Shown here: one piece after another, positions 553-18,070 of the stretch | Numbering within the stretch: position 1 is the first letter of the stretch | Layout of the letters: each line of letters starts with the position of its first letter | Assembly (NCBI RefSeq): GCF_030767025.1 | Contig: NZ_JASITE010000013.1 | Location: 62,001 to 126,000, forward strand | From: Nocardia sp. CC227C | Lineage (GTDB): Bacteria; Actinomycetota; Actinomycetes; Mycobacteriales; Mycobacteriaceae | Reading direction: 5' to 3' | DNA: 64,000 nt | Made by a program: the position numbers and the translations under genes | Notes under the pieces: model-generated | Database searches by the model: none | What the model was told of the DNA's origin: nothing | The model's input: only the letters and a program-made list of their open reading frames with translations

Positions 553-974
553 CCACCACCACCGAGCATCCGGCGCGGGTCGCCGGGGCAGCCTCGCAGG
601 CCGCCGTCCGGGCGCGCGACAAGGCGGCCTGGGTCGCGCTCTTCGCCGCCGACGGCATTGTCGAGGACCCGGTCGGCCCGTCCTTCTTCGACCCCGAGGG
701 CAAGGGGCACCGCGGCGCGGAGGCCATCGCGGCATTCTGGGACAAGGCGATCGCCCCGACCGAGCAGATCGAATTTCACTTCGAGGACTCCTTCGCCTGC
801 GGTCGCGAGATCGCCTTCACCGGGAAGATCCGCACCTACATGGGCGGCCAGGTGATCGACGCCGAGGGTGTCTTCACCTACAAGGTGGACGAGGACGGGA
901 AGATTCTCGCCCTGCGCGCCTTCTGGGAACAGGAGCGCGCCATGGCGACCATGAAACCCGCTGGAACACGCTAG
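549..974 (+). CDS. SnoaL/ketosteroid-isomerase-like protein (NTF2 fold)
   Basis: 141 residues, GTG start overlapping the upstream stop. The segment 'LFAADGIVEDPVGP' matches the steroid delta-5-isomerase signature in which the Asp of VEDPVG is the general base, and the C-terminal 'LRAFWEQE' strand fits the same fold. By hand alignment to bacterial ketosteroid isomerases the oxyanion-hole Tyr is replaced by Ser and the second Asp by Gly. It may therefore be a divergent isomerase or a binding protein for a steroid-CoA. Its coupling to an Ltp thiolase argues for a role in steroid catabolism; the exact reaction is unknown. Confidence 0.75.
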   Translation: MTTTTEHPARVAGAASQAAVRARDKAAWVALFAADGIVEDPVGPSFFDPEGKGHRGAEAIAAFWDKAIAPTEQIEFHFEDSFACGREIAFTGKIRTYMGGQVIDAEGVFTYKVDEDGKILALRAFWEQERAMATMKPAGTR

Positions 975-1115
975 AACCCGTGCCCGCCCGCCGTGCGGGC
1001 GGGCACCGGGCGTTCGTCAGGGCGTGCGACATGTGGCCCGGAAAGCGCGGCGGGCGGCCGGAGTTCCGGACGCCCGCCGCGTTCTTCGTCTCAGTCTTCG
1101 TCTCAGCTCTTGGTC

Positions 1116-2372
1116 TCAGTGCTGCACGGGGCAGGTCCGGTAGTCGACCTCGAACTCCTTGATCCCGTTGAGCCAGCCCGAGCGCAGCCGCCGGGGATCG
1201 CCGATGCCGGTGATATCCGGCATGTGGTCGGCGATGGCATTGAAGATGATCTCCACCTCCAGGCGCGCCAGATTCGCGCCGATGCAGAAGTGCGCACCGG
1301 TACCGCCGAAGGACAAGTGCGGGTTGGGATCCCGCAGGATGTCGAAGGTGAAGGGGTTCTCGAACACCTCTTCGTCGAAGTTGGCCGACCGGTAGAGCAG
1401 CACCACCCGCTGCCCCTTCTCGATCCGGACGCCCGAGAGTTCGGTGTCCTCCAACGCCGTGCGCTGGAACATGCTGACCGGCGTGGCCCAGCGGATGATC
1501 TCGTCCGCCGCCGTCAGGGGCCGCTGCTGTTTGAACAGCTCCCACTGCTCCGGATTCTCGAGGAAGGCGAGCATGCCGTGCGTGGTGGCATTGCGGGTGG
1601 TCTCGTTGCCCGCCACGGCGAGCATCATGACGAAGAAGCCGAACTCCTCCGACGACAGCGACTCACCGTCGATCTCGGCCTGCACCAGCTCGGTGACGAT
1701 ATCGCTGGCCGGACACCGCTTGCGCTCCTCGGCCATCTGGTACGAGTAGCCGAGGATCTCGGTGGAGGCGACCAGCGGGTCGGCATCGCTGTCCGGATCG
1801 TCGTAGCCGGTCATCTCGTTGGACCAGCGGAAGATCTTCTTCCGGTCCTCCTGCGGTACACCGATCAGCTCGGCGATGGCCTGCAGCGGCAGTTCGGCCG
1901 CCACCTGCTCGACGAAGTCGCCGCGCCCCGACTCGGCGGCGGCCCGCACGATCCGCTCGGCGCGCGCGGTCAGCTCGGCGCGCAGGCCGTTGATCACGCG
2001 CGGCGTGAAGCCCTTGGCGATGATCTTGCGCAGCTTGGTGTGCTCGGGGGCGTCCTTGTTCAACATCACGAACCGCTGCATCTCGATCTGCTCGCGGGTG
2101 ATGTCGTCGTTGAAACGCGGGATGGCGGTGTTCTCGTAGTTGGAGAACACATCGCTGCGACGGGAGACCTCCTTGACGTCGGCGTGCTTGCTGACCACCC
2201 AGAAGCCGTCGTCGTGGAAGCCGCCCACTTCCGGCGATTTGGGGTTCCACCAGATGGGGGCCGTCCGCCGCAATTCGGCGAATTCTTCGACCGGGACTCG
2301 GCTCGCCCACATGTCCGGGTCCGTGACATCGAATCCGTCCGGCACATTGGGCCGCATTGAGGTGTCGACCAC
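1116..2372 (-). CDS. cyp125: Steroid C26/C27 monooxygenase, cytochrome P450 CYP125
   Basis: 418 residues from the GTG at 2372, which has AAGGAGA seven bases upstream; a longer reading would begin inside the KstR box. The I-helix motif AVAGNETTRN and the heme loop FGGTGAHFCIGANLAR (Cys363) are intact, and the whole sequence tracks M. tuberculosis CYP125A1 closely (for example IPRFNDDI, LPLQAIAELIGVPQEDR, RSANFDEEVF). CYP125 oxidises the terminal methyl of cholesterol or cholestenone to the acid, the first step of side-chain removal. It is divergent from fadA5 and shares a KstR-controlled intergenic region with it. Confidence 0.95.
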   Translation of the reverse strand: MVDTSMRPNVPDGFDVTDPDMWASRVPVEEFAELRRTAPIWWNPKSPEVGGFHDDGFWVVSKHADVKEVSRRSDVFSNYENTAIPRFNDDITREQIEMQRFVMLNKDAPEHTKLRKIIAKGFTPRVINGLRAELTARAERIVRAAAESGRGDFVEQVAAELPLQAIAELIGVPQEDRKKIFRWSNEMTGYDDPDSDADPLVASTEILGYSYQMAEERKRCPASDIVTELVQAEIDGESLSSEEFGFFVMMLAVAGNETTRNATTHGMLAFLENPEQWELFKQQRPLTAADEIIRWATPVSMFQRTALEDTELSGVRIEKGQRVVLLYRSANFDEEVFENPFTFDILRDPNPHLSFGGTGAHFCIGANLARLEVEIIFNAIADHMPDITGIGDPRRLRSGWLNGIKEFEVDYRTCPVQH

Positions 2373-2393
2373 CAGCAGTCTCCTTTGACCGAC

Positions 2394-2407
2394 TGAAACA
2401 CGTTCTA
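2394..2407. promoter_or_regulatory. KstR operator upstream of cyp125
   Basis: TGAAACACGTTCTA matches the KstR consensus TnnAACnnGTTnnA at every fixed position. It lies 22 bases upstream of the cyp125 GTG, so bound KstR would block that promoter. Confidence 0.85.
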
Positions 2408-2464
2408 CCATCATTGAAGCACAGGTGGTACGACTGAGGAAGATGAATTAGTAAACAGCTGTAA

Positions 2465-3673
<1,209 letters not shown>

Positions 3674-4033
3674 TCCCCAACCTTTTTCGGCCACGAGGTT
3701 GAACATTCATCCTACGACCCGTCAAACGTGGCGTACGCCACACAAACTTCGGTACAGACAAGATGATGACTCGTCAGCTATCTTATAGCTACTGGCGGCC
3801 CGTTGCGGAAGACCTTCGCGACGGGCCAGAACCGGGGCTCTTAAGCCATCCGCAAGAACCGTGAGGGTGGCCCGCAAACGCCCAAGCCACAGCGGCTTCG
3901 CCGGATCACCGTCGAGAAGGTTCAAGGAAATCGCGAATCAGGCGTAGGTTTTCAGTTACTGAGCCGCTAATATCAATGATACGTATCCGAGATAACGACT
4001 GTTAGTACAGCGAAGGGAATTGGGCGGCTCACA
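3674..4033. other. Intergenic region fadA5 to espR-like, with a perfect palindrome
   Basis: 360 bases without a convincing gene. It holds a 14-base perfect palindrome, GTGGCGTACGCCAC (3728-3741), which looks like a regulator site. AT-rich stretches near 3778-3795 and 3966-3985 may contain promoter elements for the regulator downstream. A short minus-strand reading at 3722-3925 has no recognisable content and was not called. Confidence 0.5.
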
Positions 4034-4450
4034 ATGGCTGATTTCGCGGCGCGGCTGAACAAGCTGTTCGAAACCGTGCATCCCCCGGGGCGTAAGCCGC
4101 ACACCAACGCAGAGGTGGCGGCGGCCTTGACGGCCTCCGGCCATCCGATCTCGAAACCGTATCTGTCACAGCTGCGGTCGGGACAGCGCACGAATCCGTC
4201 GGACGAGACGGTGGCTGCACTGGCGAAGTTCTTCAAGGTCAAGCCTGACTACTTCTTCAACGACATCTACGCTGCCAAGATCGATCATGATCTGGAGTTG
4301 CTGTCCCAGCTGCAGGGCTACGGACTGCGTCGGCTGTCGAGTAGGGCCTTCGACCTCTCCGAAGAATCACAGAACCTCCTCACCTCCATGGCGGAGAAGT
4401 TGCGGGCATCAGAGGGGCTGCCCGAAATTCCTCCGGACGGCACGGAATAG
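4034..4450 (+). CDS. EspR-like helix-turn-helix DNA-binding protein
   Basis: 138 residues. N-terminal 'FAARLNKLFETVHPPG', followed by a helix-turn-helix (about residues 25-75, with SKPYLSQLRSGQRTNPS) and a C-terminal helical tail, reproduces the layout of M. tuberculosis EspR (132 aa), a dimeric nucleoid-associated regulator of ESX-1 and cell-wall genes. It is alone on the plus strand and convergent with the membrane-protein operon, so nothing in the layout identifies its targets. Whether it is the EspR orthologue or one of several paralogues cannot be settled from this window. Confidence 0.85.
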   Translation: MADFAARLNKLFETVHPPGRKPHTNAEVAAALTASGHPISKPYLSQLRSGQRTNPSDETVAALAKFFKVKPDYFFNDIYAAKIDHDLELLSQLQGYGLRRLSSRAFDLSEESQNLLTSMAEKLRASEGLPEIPPDGTE

Positions 4451-4935: not shown

Positions 4936-5961
4936 TCAGCGCTGCGCCGACGGCTGACCGGCCCCGCTTTCCAGCGCCTCGTCGAAGGCGCGAGCAATGG
5001 CCTGAGCCCAGCCGCGCGGGCTCACGCCGGGCGGCGGAGCGATCCACCGACCGTCTACCACGGTCTCGCCGAAGGGATTCCGCGCCCACAGCGCCACCCG
5101 CTCGGCCCGTTCGGTCACCGATTCGGGTGGCGCACCGGCATCGGCCAGCTCCACGCCGCCGCCGGACTGCAGGAACAGGGCGTCCATGATCTGCGCCACC
5201 TGGTCGGACGCCTTGAGCTGGGTGGTGGACCCGGTCTGATCCTTGGTCACCACCTCCGGGAAGCGCGCCACCAGCACCCGGTGCAGGGTGCGAATCTCCC
5301 GCAGCAGCAAGCGCGCTCGCAGCCAGAGCTCGATCACGATCCACACCGCGCCCATGGCGATCAGCAGCGACGCGATCTGCCAGGCGGGCCAGAACCAGTC
5401 CGGTTGCTGCGGTTTCGGCATGGTCGCGTGATCTATCTCACGTCGCAGCGACAGCGTCGACAGCACGCCGACCACCAGGGTGCCGGTGGTGTAGAGCGCG
5501 ATGCCGCGGCCCAGGGTGGTCCAGTCCAGGTTGCGCACGCCGGTGATGACGATGAAGACGCAACCGAGCAGGGCGACCACCCAACCGAAGGTGGTGGACC
5601 ACACCAGGGTGATGATCATCGCGACGAGCCCGCCGGCGTAGATCATCCAGGAGATCTGGCGCAGATTCCGGCGTGACACCACCGGCCACGCCGCCGCGGC
5701 CACCACCGAGGTCGAGGTCACGAACAGCGCCCAGAGCATGGGAGTGAGCCTGTCGGACAACCACATTCCGCGCACCCCGGCCGGGGCGATGTGATCCACC
5801 GCCACCGCGACATCCGGAATCGCGACGGTGGAGGCCGCCGCGACGGACGCCACCGCGATCACGATCGCCACCCGCGCGGTGGTCGCGGGCTTGACCAGCA
5901 CCCGGCCCACCCGCGCCCCGGCCGCCATCCAGACCAGTAGCGCCGTCAACCAGAAGGTCAT
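4936..5961 (-). CDS. Polytopic membrane protein of the MAB_1171c-like type
   Basis: 341 residues. About seven hydrophobic helices fill the first ~220 residues (for example MTFWLTALLVWMAAGARVG, MLWALFVTSTSVVAAAAWPV, WMIYAGGLVAMIITLVW). A cytoplasmic C-terminal region follows, rich in charged residues, with a helix 'LWLRARLLLREIRTLHRVL'. This architecture and its position next to an ImmA/IrrE peptidase resemble the actinobacterial MAB_1171c/DUF6545 group, whose function is unknown. It is the last gene of a three-gene operon, 55 bases after the peptidase gene. The family assignment rests on architecture and context rather than clear motifs. Confidence 0.6.
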   Translation of the reverse strand: MTFWLTALLVWMAAGARVGRVLVKPATTARVAIVIAVASVAAASTVAIPDVAVAVDHIAPAGVRGMWLSDRLTPMLWALFVTSTSVVAAAAWPVVSRRNLRQISWMIYAGGLVAMIITLVWSTTFGWVVALLGCVFIVITGVRNLDWTTLGRGIALYTTGTLVVGVLSTLSLRREIDHATMPKPQQPDWFWPAWQIASLLIAMGAVWIVIELWLRARLLLREIRTLHRVLVARFPEVVTKDQTGSTTQLKASDQVAQIMDALFLQSGGGVELADAGAPPESVTERAERVALWARNPFGETVVDGRWIAPPPGVSPRGWAQAIARAFDEALESGAGQPSAQR

Positions 5962-6016: not shown

Positions 6017-6535
6017 TCATCCGAGTGCCTCGTCGAAGCGCAGAACCGAGACGCCCGCGCCTCGGCTGTTGAATACACGCAGTCGGGTCATGAGCATGTT
6101 CGCGAAGGTCTCCGCCTCCCACTCGCACAGTTCGTCCTCGCCGAGATCCACGATCTGCTGGTGCGCGCGCTGGCTGAGCATGTAGGCGATGAGATCCTCG
6201 CTGGCCTCCAGCGTGACCTCGGTCGCGGCCTCGCCCGGATGGTCGAACACGATATGCCCCAGCTCGTGCGCGAGCGTGTGCTCGCGCGTGGGTAGCGCGG
6301 CGGCCAGCACGATCACATCCCGGTCCGGGTAGCTGCGGCGCTGTCCGCACACACCCGGGCCCAACTGCGCGCTGGCGATCTCGATGGGCCGCCGCCGCTC
6401 CAGCGAGATGGCGTCCACCACCTCGTCGAGGGTGGTGGCGTCGAAGTCGGCGGCGACCGCGCACACCGCGTCGACGGCGGCCGCCACCCGGCGGTAGGAC
6501 CTGCTGGCGCTGCTATGCGCTCGACTCTCGGTCAT
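6017..6535 (-). CDS. ImmA/IrrE-type zinc metallopeptidase
   Basis: 172 residues with a gluzincin motif HELGHIVFDHP (residues 90-100); a downstream Glu-rich helix around EDELCEWEAETFANMLM supplies the third metal ligand typical of the family. ImmA/IrrE peptidases usually cleave a cognate helix-turn-helix repressor to release genes. No repressor gene is fused or directly adjacent; the nearest is the EspR-like gene on the opposite strand. It starts 10 bases after the repeat-protein stop, so the two are almost certainly cotranscribed. Confidence 0.85.
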   Translation of the reverse strand: MTESRAHSSASRSYRRVAAAVDAVCAVAADFDATTLDEVVDAISLERRRPIEIASAQLGPGVCGQRRSYPDRDVIVLAAALPTREHTLAHELGHIVFDHPGEAATEVTLEASEDLIAYMLSQRAHQQIVDLGEDELCEWEAETFANMLMTRLRVFNSRGAGVSVLRFDEALG

Positions 6536-6545
6536 CGCTGCCCCC

Positions 6546-8012
6546 TCACGCCCTCGGGCCGAAGAACTGGGCGCGCGCGGCGTCGATCCGCGCCTGCGCC
6601 GCCGACGCGCTCTGCGCGCTCACCGCACCGGAACCCACGCCCGCCAGCGTGAGCGCTATGAGTCCGCCGATGACCGACAGCAGTTTGATCGGTGGCAGCA
6701 GACCCGTGTCGGATGTGGGCCGCACCTGCGGATCCGGCTGTGCCACCACAGGATCGGACGCCGCCGGCGGCGCCGGTTCCGCCGGTGGCTCGGGAGCCGG
6801 AGCCGCCGCCACCTCCACGGGCGGCGCGACCACCGGAGCCACCGCGGGCAGCGGCACCTGGGGCGCGGGCGGTGTCGGAATTTCCAGCGGTATGGGCGGA
6901 GGCACCGGCGCGGGCGTCGGCTGCGGAATCAGCAGAAGCAGCAGCGGGGACGCGCAGACGGCGGCCGAACCAGCTCCCGCCGAACCCAGCGCGCCCGAAC
7001 CCGTTGCCGCCGAACCGGCCCCGGCCGAACCGACGGCAGCCGATCCGGCCCCGGCGGAACCGACGGCGGCCGAACCGACCCCGGTCGATCCGGTCGCGGC
7101 CGAACCGAGCGCCGCGGAACCGGCACCGGAACCGGTGGCCGCGGAGCCCGCGGCCGATCCGGCACCCGCGGAACCCACTCCGGCCGAACCCACGGCAGCC
7201 GAACCGGTACACAGTGCGGCCAAGGCCGCCGACCCCGTCGCCGCGGAGCCGACCGCGGCGGAACCCACTGCGGCCGAACCGGTCCCGAGACCGGCCGAAC
7301 CGGTGAAACCCAGCAGGGTCGCGAGCGTCGCGGCCGCCGAGCCGGTGCCGACCGCGGCCGAGCCCAGTGCCGCGGAACCGGTCGCCACACCGGCGGAACC
7401 GGTGAGCCCCAGCAGTGTGGCGAGGGTGGCCGCCGCCGAACCGGTGCCGACCGCGGCGGAACCCACTGCCGCCGAACCGGTCCCGAGACCGGCCGAACCG
7501 GTGAGGCCGAGCAGCGCCGCCATGCCTGCGGATCCGGTGCCGAGCACGGTGCCGGCACCGACTCCGGCGGAACCCACTGCGGCGGAACCCGTTCCGAGAG
7601 CGGCGGAACCCGTGGTCAGGGCGGCGGAACCCGAGCCGAGGACAGCCGATCCGGCTCCCGCGCCCGCCGAGCCGACGGCCGCTCCGGCCGAGCCGGTGGC
7701 GGCGGAGCCGGTGCCGAGGGCGGCGGAACCCGTTCCGGTGGCGGCGGATCCGGTGGCGGCGGAGCCAATGCCCGCCGAGCCGGTGGCGGCCGAGCCGATT
7801 CCGGCCGAACCGGTGCCGAGCAGAGCGCCGACCAGATCCCACGGACCGGCGGCGGGCGTCGGCTCCAGCGGGGCTTCGACGGGCTGGGGTGCGGGCGCGG
7901 GTTCGAGGTCGATCCCGCCGGGCTGGGCAAGGGCAGCCATGGGCCCGAGCAGCGTCGTAGCGGTGACCATCCCGGCCACCGCCACTATGCGCAAGGTGCG
8001 ACCAACACTCAC
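6546..8012 (-). CDS. Exported Gly-Ser-Ala pentapeptide-repeat protein with C-terminal membrane anchor
   Basis: 488 residues. An N-terminal signal peptide (residues ~1-30, ending ALAQPG) is followed by a Pro-rich linker. About 280 residues of imperfect five- to seven-residue repeats follow, of the type GSAA-x and GTGSAG-x (about residues 66-345), with only two Cys. A second Pro-rich stretch of ~95 residues comes next, and a hydrophobic helix LLSVIGGLIALTLAGVGSGA lies near the C-terminus with a short charged tail. This looks like a wall-spanning stalk anchored in the membrane. No enzymatic domain is seen. The repeat DNA produces long shadow reading frames on the other strand, which are not genes. 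Confidence 0.8.
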   Translation of the reverse strand: MSVGRTLRIVAVAGMVTATTLLGPMAALAQPGGIDLEPAPAPQPVEAPLEPTPAAGPWDLVGALLGTGSAGIGSAATGSAGIGSAATGSAATGTGSAALGTGSAATGSAGAAVGSAGAGAGSAVLGSGSAALTTGSAALGTGSAAVGSAGVGAGTVLGTGSAGMAALLGLTGSAGLGTGSAAVGSAAVGTGSAAATLATLLGLTGSAGVATGSAALGSAAVGTGSAAATLATLLGFTGSAGLGTGSAAVGSAAVGSAATGSAALAALCTGSAAVGSAGVGSAGAGSAAGSAATGSGAGSAALGSAATGSTGVGSAAVGSAGAGSAAVGSAGAGSAATGSGALGSAGAGSAAVCASPLLLLLIPQPTPAPVPPPIPLEIPTPPAPQVPLPAVAPVVAPPVEVAAAPAPEPPAEPAPPAASDPVVAQPDPQVRPTSDTGLLPPIKLLSVIGGLIALTLAGVGSGAVSAQSASAAQARIDAARAQFFGPRA

Positions 8013-8431
8013 GCGACAGCCTTCCCCTCATCGGTATTACTGCGCAGTCCAATCGCCCGGTCGCCCCGATTGCCGGACCTTTGCGGAACGCGGGTCATGC
8101 TACCGACAACCCACCCACCCCGCACAACTCTTCCCGGCATTAGGGGCTTCAACCAACCGTACGTCCACCCCTGCTCCGACACGCCGAATATCACAAACCG
8201 CCCCAGGACAATTCGGGCGTAACACCCGCACCACCGCGCAGCTCACCCCGCCGGTCGCGCCATTGTGAGACCACCTGGTCCGCACACGACCGATCGGTTT
8301 GCTGTGCCGGAAACGAAATAGGTTGCGGGAGAGCGGTCCACGATAGCCGCCACCGCGAAATGTGATGATGGACACAAAAGAACGTCGCCGGTACCCCGCG
8401 AGCGGTACCGGCGACGTGAGATCTACGGGTG
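8013..8431. other. Intergenic region upstream of the repeat-protein operon
   Basis: 419 bases without a supported gene; it should carry the promoter of the 8012-4936 operon. The only strong feature is the terminator at its right end. Confidence 0.5.
8382..8417 (-). terminator. Rho-independent terminator of the SDR gene
   Basis: A 14-base-pair perfect stem (ACGTCGCCGGTACC with GGTACCGGCGACGT) has an eight-base loop. Read on the minus strand it is followed by TCTTTTGTGT, a reasonable U-tract, just after the stop at 8432. Confidence 0.85.
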
Positions 8432-17585: not shown

Positions 17586-17800
17586 TCTCACTCCGCTTTC
17601 TACGGGTCCGACAAATGCTGCGAGCATCGTAGGCGAGCAAACGGTCGGTTTGTGCCGCGGCGGGTGCCGCGGTGCGGCGGGCGCGGGAGCACGGCGGTGG
17701 ACTCGGCGAGCGCGGGTGGAACCGCGCCGGGTACGCCTGCGGCGACGGACGGCAGCAGACGCGGCGACGGGCATCGCCCGATCCGCGCTGTCGCCTGCCA
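17586..17800. other. Intergenic region upstream of the permease
   Basis: 215 bases that should contain the permease promoter. The only pattern is a small imperfect palindrome around CAAACGGTCGGTTTG (17638-17652), a candidate regulator site. No gene seen. Confidence 0.4.
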
Positions 17801-18070
17801 CAGGCCGTAACGCTGTCGGATATGCGGGGTCGGCTGCTACACGCCGCAACGCCGTCGGATACGCGGGGGTCGGCTGCTACACGCCGCAACGCCGTCGAAT
17901 GCGCGGGGTTCGACTGCTACACGCCGCAACGCCGTCGAATGCGCGGGGGTCGGCTGCTACACGCCGCAACGCCGTCGAATGCGCGGGGGTCGGCTGCTAC
18001 ACGCCGCAACGCCGTCGGGTATGCGGGTTCGACTGCTACAGGCCGTAACGCCGTCGGATGTGCGGGGGTA
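17801..18070. repeat. Seven-copy 40-bp tandem repeat array
   Basis: Units start at 17801, 17841, 17881, 17921, 17961, 18001 and about 18040 (the last partial). Core: CGCCGCAACGCCGTCG, then a variable GAATG/GGATA, then CGGGGGTCGG and CTGCTACA. Units 4 and 5 are identical; others differ at a few bases and one base is lost in unit 6. There are no spacers, so it is not a CRISPR array. The last unit overlaps the 3' end of the YbaB-like gene and encodes its final residues. Confidence 0.9.

What the first reader, a model, noticed from the sequence alone, without database searches (positions are those of the whole stretch)
6546..8012. Exported Gly-Ser-Ala repeat stalk protein in an operon with a metallopeptidase
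About 280 residues of near-pure GSAA-x repeats between a signal peptide and a Pro-rich, membrane-anchored C-terminus form an elastin- or silk-like extracellular stalk. It is cotranscribed (10-base gap) with an ImmA/IrrE peptidase and a seven-helix membrane protein, an unusual combination that may be a surface-stress sensing system.
Basis: partly seen in the sequence, partly recalled or inferred. Interest (0 to 1): 0.55.

Follow-up and report, generated by a model that had tools for sequence, protein, structure and literature searches.

The report
Envelope stalk-protease module beside EspR-like regulator
A long repetitive surface protein of a Nocardia-like bacterium is one part of a widely conserved four-gene set (surface stalk, membrane protein, protease, DNA-binding regulator) that probably reports the state of the cell envelope to a chromosome-organising protein related to a known tuberculosis regulator.

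Summary
In detail: window 8012-6546 (-) encodes a 488-aa exported protein with GSA repeats, a Pro-rich linker, a C-terminal membrane helix and a short tail, 10 bases before an ImmA/IrrE (M78) peptidase and then a seven-helix protein. In 301 family genomes, all 89 close ImmA homologues examined lie within 6 kb of this regulator, 86 beside the 7TM gene, 67 beside a stalk with the same tail. In 80 named ImmA loci, 7TM and regulator are in 80, the stalk tail in 75. Five putative Mycobacterium loci have regulator, 7TM and ImmA; four also an exported low-complexity stalk. The GSA repeat is not the conserved part: other genera and some Nocardia use different repeats, while membrane helix and tail stay. 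In two Nocardia genomes stalk and ImmA are gone, 7TM decayed, regulator intact. Best reading: an envelope-to-nucleoid signalling module in which ImmA acts on the EspR-like protein; that action is inferred, not shown.

The parts
6546..8012 (-). Stalk protein gene, 488 aa: signal peptide, GSA repeats, Pro-rich linker, membrane helix, short tail
7926..8012 (-). Signal peptide region, residues 1-29
   Evidence: sequence; hydrophobic 9-28; helix 2-28; N-terminus similar in Nocardia orthologues
6951..7829 (-). GSA repeat region, residues 62-354, 293 aa
   Evidence: predicted almost without structure
6708..6932 (-). Pro-rich linker, residues 361-435
   Evidence: sequence
6549..6689 (-). Membrane helix and C-terminal tail, residues 442-488 (one predicted helix 442-484); the conserved part of the protein
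   Evidence: profile found in 69 of 301 family genomes, one of them probably chance
6017..6535 (-). ImmA/IrrE-type (M78) zinc metallopeptidase, 172 aa; HELGH at 6254-6268
   Evidence: Pfam PF06114; H90 E91 H94 invariant in 31 sequences
4936..5961 (-). Seven-helix membrane protein with C-terminal helical domain, 341 aa, remote MAB_1171c relative
4034..4450 (+). EspR-like XRE regulator, 138 aa, convergent to the three-gene operon
3939..4033 (+). 95-bp block upstream of the regulator; at most 4 deviations from the majority in 60 of 61 Nocardia rows counted (window included)
3971..3994 (+). Two inverted repeats TATCAATGATA and TATCCGAGATA, candidate operator; the pair occurs once in the genome at up to 2 mismatches
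8382..8417 (-). Terminator-like hairpin (14 pairs, then T-rich) between the upstream SDR gene and the stalk operon; the scan as a whole found 2 against 2.6 in shuffles

Best explanation
It is a four-part envelope-to-nucleoid signalling module. The stalk protein is exported, crosses the wall as a flexible low-complexity tether, and is held in the plasma membrane by one helix with a short cytoplasmic tail. With the 7TM protein it senses the state of the envelope. That signal controls the cytosolic ImmA peptidase, which cleaves or otherwise inactivates the convergent EspR-like regulator, as IrrE does DdrO and ImmA does ImmR, and so changes expression of envelope genes. Shown here: architecture, homologies, near-invariant gene neighbourhood, conserved tail against exchangeable repeats, coordinated loss in two genomes. 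Inferred: topology of the tail, the sensing role, ImmA acting on the regulator, and the target genes.
For: Regulator within 6 kb of 89 of 89 close ImmA homologues examined, 7TM within 1.5 kb of 86 of 89; 80 of 80 named ImmA loci have both, 75 of 80 the stalk tail. The set keeps together although surroundings and layout change: beside a thiolase and P450 in Nocardia, without these in the Rhodococcus stretches, regulator co-directional upstream in Gordonia and genera g30 and g43 (8 of 89 same strand). Five putative Mycobacterium loci carry EspR-like gene, 7TM and ImmA, four of them an exported low-complexity stalk. Two Nocardia genomes: stalk and ImmA gone, 7TM a remnant or in pieces, regulator intact. 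ImmA/IrrE proteases acting on XRE repressors is an established mechanism (abstract of PMC7907104; passages of PMC2701414). ImmA and regulator match the PADLOC capP and capH models (E=1.8e-6 and 7.4e-5), recalled as another such pair. EspR of M. tuberculosis binds mostly near genes of cell-wall function (passages of PMC3315491). A knockout of MAB_1171c, a remote relative of the 7TM protein, had lower clarithromycin and cefoxitin MIC than the parent strain and about half the biofilm (passages of PMC8707978).
Against: No cleavage, interaction or expression data. Regulator and ImmA are on opposite strands at 81 of 89 loci. The regulator persists without the module in three g50 loci and six loci of other genera inspected, so it does not depend on ImmA. 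Three ImmA loci (G109, G223, G340) have no 7TM match nearby at E up to 1e-6. In M. tuberculosis EspR is reported to accumulate stably (passage), though that species was not examined here. The 7TM model has no significant PDB match (best E=0.025). The MAB_1171c similarity is far below the curated cut-off (9.4 against 100 bits). The EspR binding motif of M. tuberculosis is not enriched upstream of the regulator (6 found, 6.2 expected in 41 stretches; a 42nd was empty).
Confidence: 0.5

Rival explanations
1. The stalk is the output, not the sensor: ImmA or the 7TM protein processes or retains the stalk's tail and so controls how much of this surface polymer is displayed or shed; the regulator only sets expression.
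For: Membrane helix and tail are the best conserved part of the stalk (14 invariant columns in 19 Nocardia sequences); stalk and ImmA are adjacent and co-lost; stalk length and chemistry vary widely, as for surface polymers.
Against: ImmA-type peptidases are known for XRE substrates; a regulator lies at every close ImmA locus examined, whereas one genome has the stalk elsewhere (G089).
Confidence: 0.2
2. The 7TM protein is a transporter for an envelope component and the stalk a wall-spanning scaffold; ImmA and the regulator form an ordinary feedback loop for the operon.
For: NCBI names the remote family 'putative transporter' (20 of 31 members match at E up to 1, best 3.2e-5); the MAB_1171c mutant has lower MIC for two drugs and less biofilm.
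Against: No transporter fold match; curated cut-off not met; the regulator is far more conserved than a local feedback repressor needs (98-100% identical to the window's in 31 Nocardia loci while 7TM is 58-88%).
Confidence: 0.17
3. It is a toxin-antitoxin-like or anti-phage unit built on an ImmA/XRE pair.
For: COG2856-Xre pairs were proposed as TA-like (passages of PMC2701414); weak capP and capH matches.
Against: ImmA orthologue in 31 of 35 other Nocardia genomes, at one conserved chromosomal place in the 31 loci fetched; no PADLOC match for stalk or 7TM.
Confidence: 0.05
4. Neighbourhood by inertia: the genes are conserved side by side without working together.
For: In Nocardia the flanking genes are conserved too.
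Against: The same set stays together in genera where the flanks and the regulator's orientation differ, and parts are lost together.
Confidence: 0.05

Closest known systems
EspR (Rv3849), nucleoid-associated XRE regulator of M. tuberculosis
   Same: Homologous over residues 3-129 (E=6.2e-38); same size; a g50 locus carries a much closer EspR relative beside the module (L115, E=2.3e-67)
   Different: Diverged from EspR; the 31 aligned regulators of this group are 72-100% identical to the window's; no TTTGC[TC][GA] motif in the 350 bp upstream in the window
IrrE/DdrO of Deinococcus and ImmA/ImmR of ICEBs1
   Same: M78 zinc peptidase with a small XRE regulator
   Different: Here a bare 172-aa peptidase accompanied by a 7TM protein and an exported stalk, at a conserved chromosomal place; cleavage untested
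CapP/CapH (CBASS control pair; recalled, only the model names come)
   Same: Peptidase and XRE match the two models weakly
   Different: Stalk and 7TM match no PADLOC model; envelope partners instead
MAB_1171c family putative transporter (NF042915)
   Same: Remote similarity of the 7TM protein, best 5.9e-9 in a mycobacterial member
   Different: Below the curated cut-off in every member whose score was shown
PE_PGRS and PPE-MPTR repeat proteins (recalled)
   Same: Gly/Ala-rich repeats of about five residues in mycolate bacteria
   Different: No Pfam match; repeat type changes between relatives while membrane helix and tail stay

Membership tests
ImmA/IrrE metallopeptidase (M78) | Profile match above cut-off | tested here: met
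   PF06114, 25 against 22 bits
ImmA/IrrE metallopeptidase (M78) | HEXXH zinc motif | tested here: met
   HELGH; H90, E91, H94 invariant in 31 sequences
ImmA/IrrE metallopeptidase (M78) | Cleaves an XRE regulator | not testable with these tools
   needs a bench assay
EspR | Full-length sequence homology to solved EspR | tested here: met
   3qf3, E=6.2e-38, residues 3-129
[quoted passage not shown]
   0 in 350 bp upstream in the window; 6 found against 6.2 expected in all; the motif is defined in M. tuberculosis
EspR | Nucleoid-associated, genome-wide binding | not testable with these tools
   needs ChIP-seq
IrrE/DdrO-type switch | Protease gene close to XRE gene | tested here: met
   89 of 89 loci examined within 6 kb
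IrrE/DdrO-type switch | Regulated cleavage | not testable with these tools
   needs a bench assay
MAB_1171c family (NF042915) | Curated cut-off 100 bits | tested here: not met
   9.4 bits for the window protein; 18.9-35.4 for four members of g50, g51 and Mycobacteroides
Silk/elastin-like or known bacterial repeat family | Profile match or predicted repeat fold | tested here: not met
   no Pfam or NCBIfam family at E up to 1; pLDDT 31-38 for 24 of 28 blocks of residues 71-350

The most novel reading that the evidence does not exclude
Across mycolic-acid bacteria the EspR family of nucleoid proteins was ancestrally governed by a trans-envelope proteolytic circuit: a wall-spanning disordered tether whose repeat is freely exchangeable, a 7TM partner and a cytosolic ImmA protease. 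Some mycobacteria lost the sensor and protease and kept EspR alone.
Probability: 0.3. Interest if true: 0.85.

Novelty: new variant of a known kind. Interest (0 to 1): 0.62.

Why it matters
How EspR activity is controlled is not settled by what I read (passages of one paper); a conserved protease and two envelope proteins beside it in several genera give a direct, testable answer. It would also be an ImmA/XRE switch with an envelope input rather than DNA damage or mobile-element control, and a clean case of a surface protein whose repeat sequence is free while its membrane helix and tail are fixed. A paper search for EspR together with IrrE found none; a search for EspR with ImmA was swamped by unrelated words, and the papers listed for EspR with Nocardia were seen as a listing only, so absence from print is not established.

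Tried and rejected
Coding on the opposite strand (539-aa Ala-Glu-Pro frame): rejected by the codon-position pattern; 6 of 10 relatives tested have stops in all three antisense frames, 4 have at least one antisense frame free of stops. A beta-solenoid or silk-like fold for the repeat: no support. A known fold for the 7TM protein: no match at E up to 0.001. A paralogue of the stalk in the same genome: the only other hit is an Ala-Gly-Ser-rich segment inside a different 837-aa frame. EspR motif upstream of the stalk operon: 26 found against 5.7 expected by mononucleotide shuffles in 42 upstream stretches, but positions differ and relatives are not independent, so I do not use it. An Rfam element near the genes: two chance-level matches only. 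RNA structure of the regulator's leader: z-score -1.2, not significant, although a 9-bp stem closes it. Solved structures for the ImmA: none convincing.

Limits of counts: one search was given 89 of the ImmA matches (those at E up to 5.2e-42; the weaker ones were left out), the best 7TM place of each of the 92 genomes (further matches left out), one stalk-tail place for each of the 69 genomes (second copies left out), and regulator places for only 110 of the 157 genomes, so its list of regulators without ImmA is incomplete. The stalk-tail profile is made of Nocardia sequences only and misses divergent tails: with a wider profile G131 and G060 have it beside ImmA, G073 does not. One of the nine genera (g40, G151) is probably a chance match: a 138-aa frame overlapping a P450 on the other strand, with no partner genes. 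In one search three loci were skipped for a low or truncated regulator match. One search took the start of one stalk (L207) from a typed estimate, and three other starts were moved by 18 bases by hand. The folding alignments hold 46 of the 80 named-locus 7TM sequences and 27 of the 51 named-locus stalk sequences, each plus the window's. Signal peptides were judged by eye, a start-codon pattern and hydropathy, with no dedicated predictor.

Full report
What is there. The - strand ORF 8012-6546 encodes 488 aa: a signal peptide, 293 residues of GSA-type repeats, a Pro-rich linker and a C-terminal membrane helix with a short tail. The repeats are far beyond chance for the composition (42 GSA against at most 11 in 2000 shuffles). 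Ten bases on comes an M78 peptidase with HELGH, and 55 bases after that a seven-helix protein. The strand is right: third-position changes dominate against the N. uniformis orthologue.

The missing partner. Convergent to this operon, at 4034-4450 (+), lies a 138-aa XRE protein whose closest solved relatives are EspR of M. tuberculosis (E=6.2e-38). In 31 orthologous Nocardia loci it is 98-100% identical to the window's, against 58-88% for the 7TM protein and 77-98% for ImmA. The own genome has no close second copy (next 34%).

Conservation of the set. Of 35 other genomes of the genus, 31 have the ImmA orthologue, one of them cut by a contig end. In the 31 loci fetched, 31 have 7TM, regulator and thiolase and 30 the P450 (L056 is a short contig); the stalk tail was found by tblastn in 29 (not L062, whose tail is seen, and not L063, which starts inside ImmA). 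Across 301 genomes of the family the regulator is in 157 (E up to 1e-20), ImmA in 113 (1e-12), 7TM in 92 (1e-6) and the stalk tail in 69 (1e-3, Nocardia profile; one probably chance). Of 89 close ImmA loci, 89 have the regulator within 6 kb, 86 the 7TM within 1.5 kb and 67 the stalk tail within 1.5 kb. A second collection, with names and overlapping the first in species, gave 80 loci by ImmA alone, in Nocardia, Antrihabitans, Aldersonia, Smaragdicoccus, Rhodococcus, Gordonia, Mycobacteroides, Mycobacterium and one unassigned MAG: 80 have 7TM, 80 the regulator, 75 the stalk tail. Of the five without, two begin 25 bases before or inside ImmA (L142, L211), two have an exported low-complexity ORF with another tail (L213, L214), and the MAG has none (L200). 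In 249 genomes of the order, 22 match ImmA at 1e-15, all in this family.

Mycobacterium. Genus g50 carries proteins much closer to EspR (L115, E=2.3e-67; L120, E=1.1e-61), with a GDT1-family gene next to the regulator in the two loci tested, L116 and L120, as rv3848 lies before espR (that rv3848 is of this family is recalled). I infer g50 is Mycobacterium. In five g50 loci regulator, 7TM and ImmA lie together; in four (L115, L117, L118, L119) the gene before ImmA encodes a signal-like N-terminus, a low-complexity region and a C-terminal hydrophobic segment followed by GYRQA(K/R)A; in L116 only a short ORF with a related end remains. Three other g50 loci have the regulator without ImmA or 7TM. 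M. tuberculosis itself was not examined.

What is constrained in the stalk. Full-length Nocardia stalks run from 309 to 704 aa (42 sequences, window included), and one of about 190 aa has almost no repeat (L055). N. donostiensis and N. takedensis use other repeats. Other genera use Thr-Glu-Pro, Asn-Gly or Ser-Asn rich stretches. The membrane helix and tail stay: 14 invariant columns in 19 Nocardia sequences, weaker but recognisable in seven other genera (g27, g30, g37, g41, g43, g44, g52). The model gives one helix through membrane segment and tail (442-484) and almost no structure for the repeats. I therefore read the repeat as a replaceable tether. Four N. cyriacigeorgica records differ in length (423 to 519 aa).

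Losses. In G005 and G026 the regulator is intact, stalk and ImmA are gone, and the 7TM gene is a remnant or in pieces (sequencing error was not excluded for the pieces); in G004 the contig ends just after the regulator, so nothing can be said; G023 has neither regulator nor stalk tail nor close ImmA. In G089 the stalk-tail gene lies elsewhere in the genome. Among the 89 loci there is none with ImmA but no regulator, while three lack a 7TM match nearby.

Mechanism. ImmA/IrrE proteases inactivating XRE repressors is established for IrrE/DdrO and ImmA/ImmR (abstract; passages). Here the peptidase is a bare catalytic domain, so input most simply comes from its membrane partners. EspR of M. tuberculosis binds mostly near cell-wall genes. 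A knockout of MAB_1171c, a remote relative of the 7TM protein, has envelope-type phenotypes. The linking steps are inference and none was tested.

Extra. The 95 bp before the regulator's start are nearly invariant in Nocardia (60 of 61 rows with at most 4 deviations), and third positions of its first 14 codons have a mean majority share of 1.00, against 0.69-0.88 in the later blocks. The block holds two TATCNNNGATA repeats, a pair found nowhere else in the genome at up to 2 mismatches. This suggests tight autoregulation.

Verdict. A real, well conserved module. Its kind (protease-controlled XRE regulator) is known; the coupling to a trans-envelope stalk, a 7TM protein and the EspR family was not found in the few paper searches made.

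Noticed in passing
window 3939-4075: About 95 bp upstream of the EspR-like gene plus its first 14 codons are nearly invariant across Nocardia, more so than the rest of the gene at third positions.
   Followed up: partly
window 17790-18069: Tandem array of a 40-bp unit, 7.1 copies, 89% matches; several open frames run across it.
   Followed up: no
window 6649-8268 (+): Long antisense open frame rich in Ala-Glu-Pro, a by-product of the GSA codons.
   Followed up: yes
L135-L211: 24 of the 80 named loci begin within 800 bases upstream of ImmA, that is inside or next to the stalk gene: assemblies often break there.
   Followed up: partly
L104, L105, L106: Second, unlinked stalk-tail proteins with different low-complexity regions in three Nocardia genomes.
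   Followed up: no
L002 (G000 C11), frame 718-3231 +: 837-aa membrane-type protein with an internal Ala-Gly-Ser-rich repeat.
   Followed up: no
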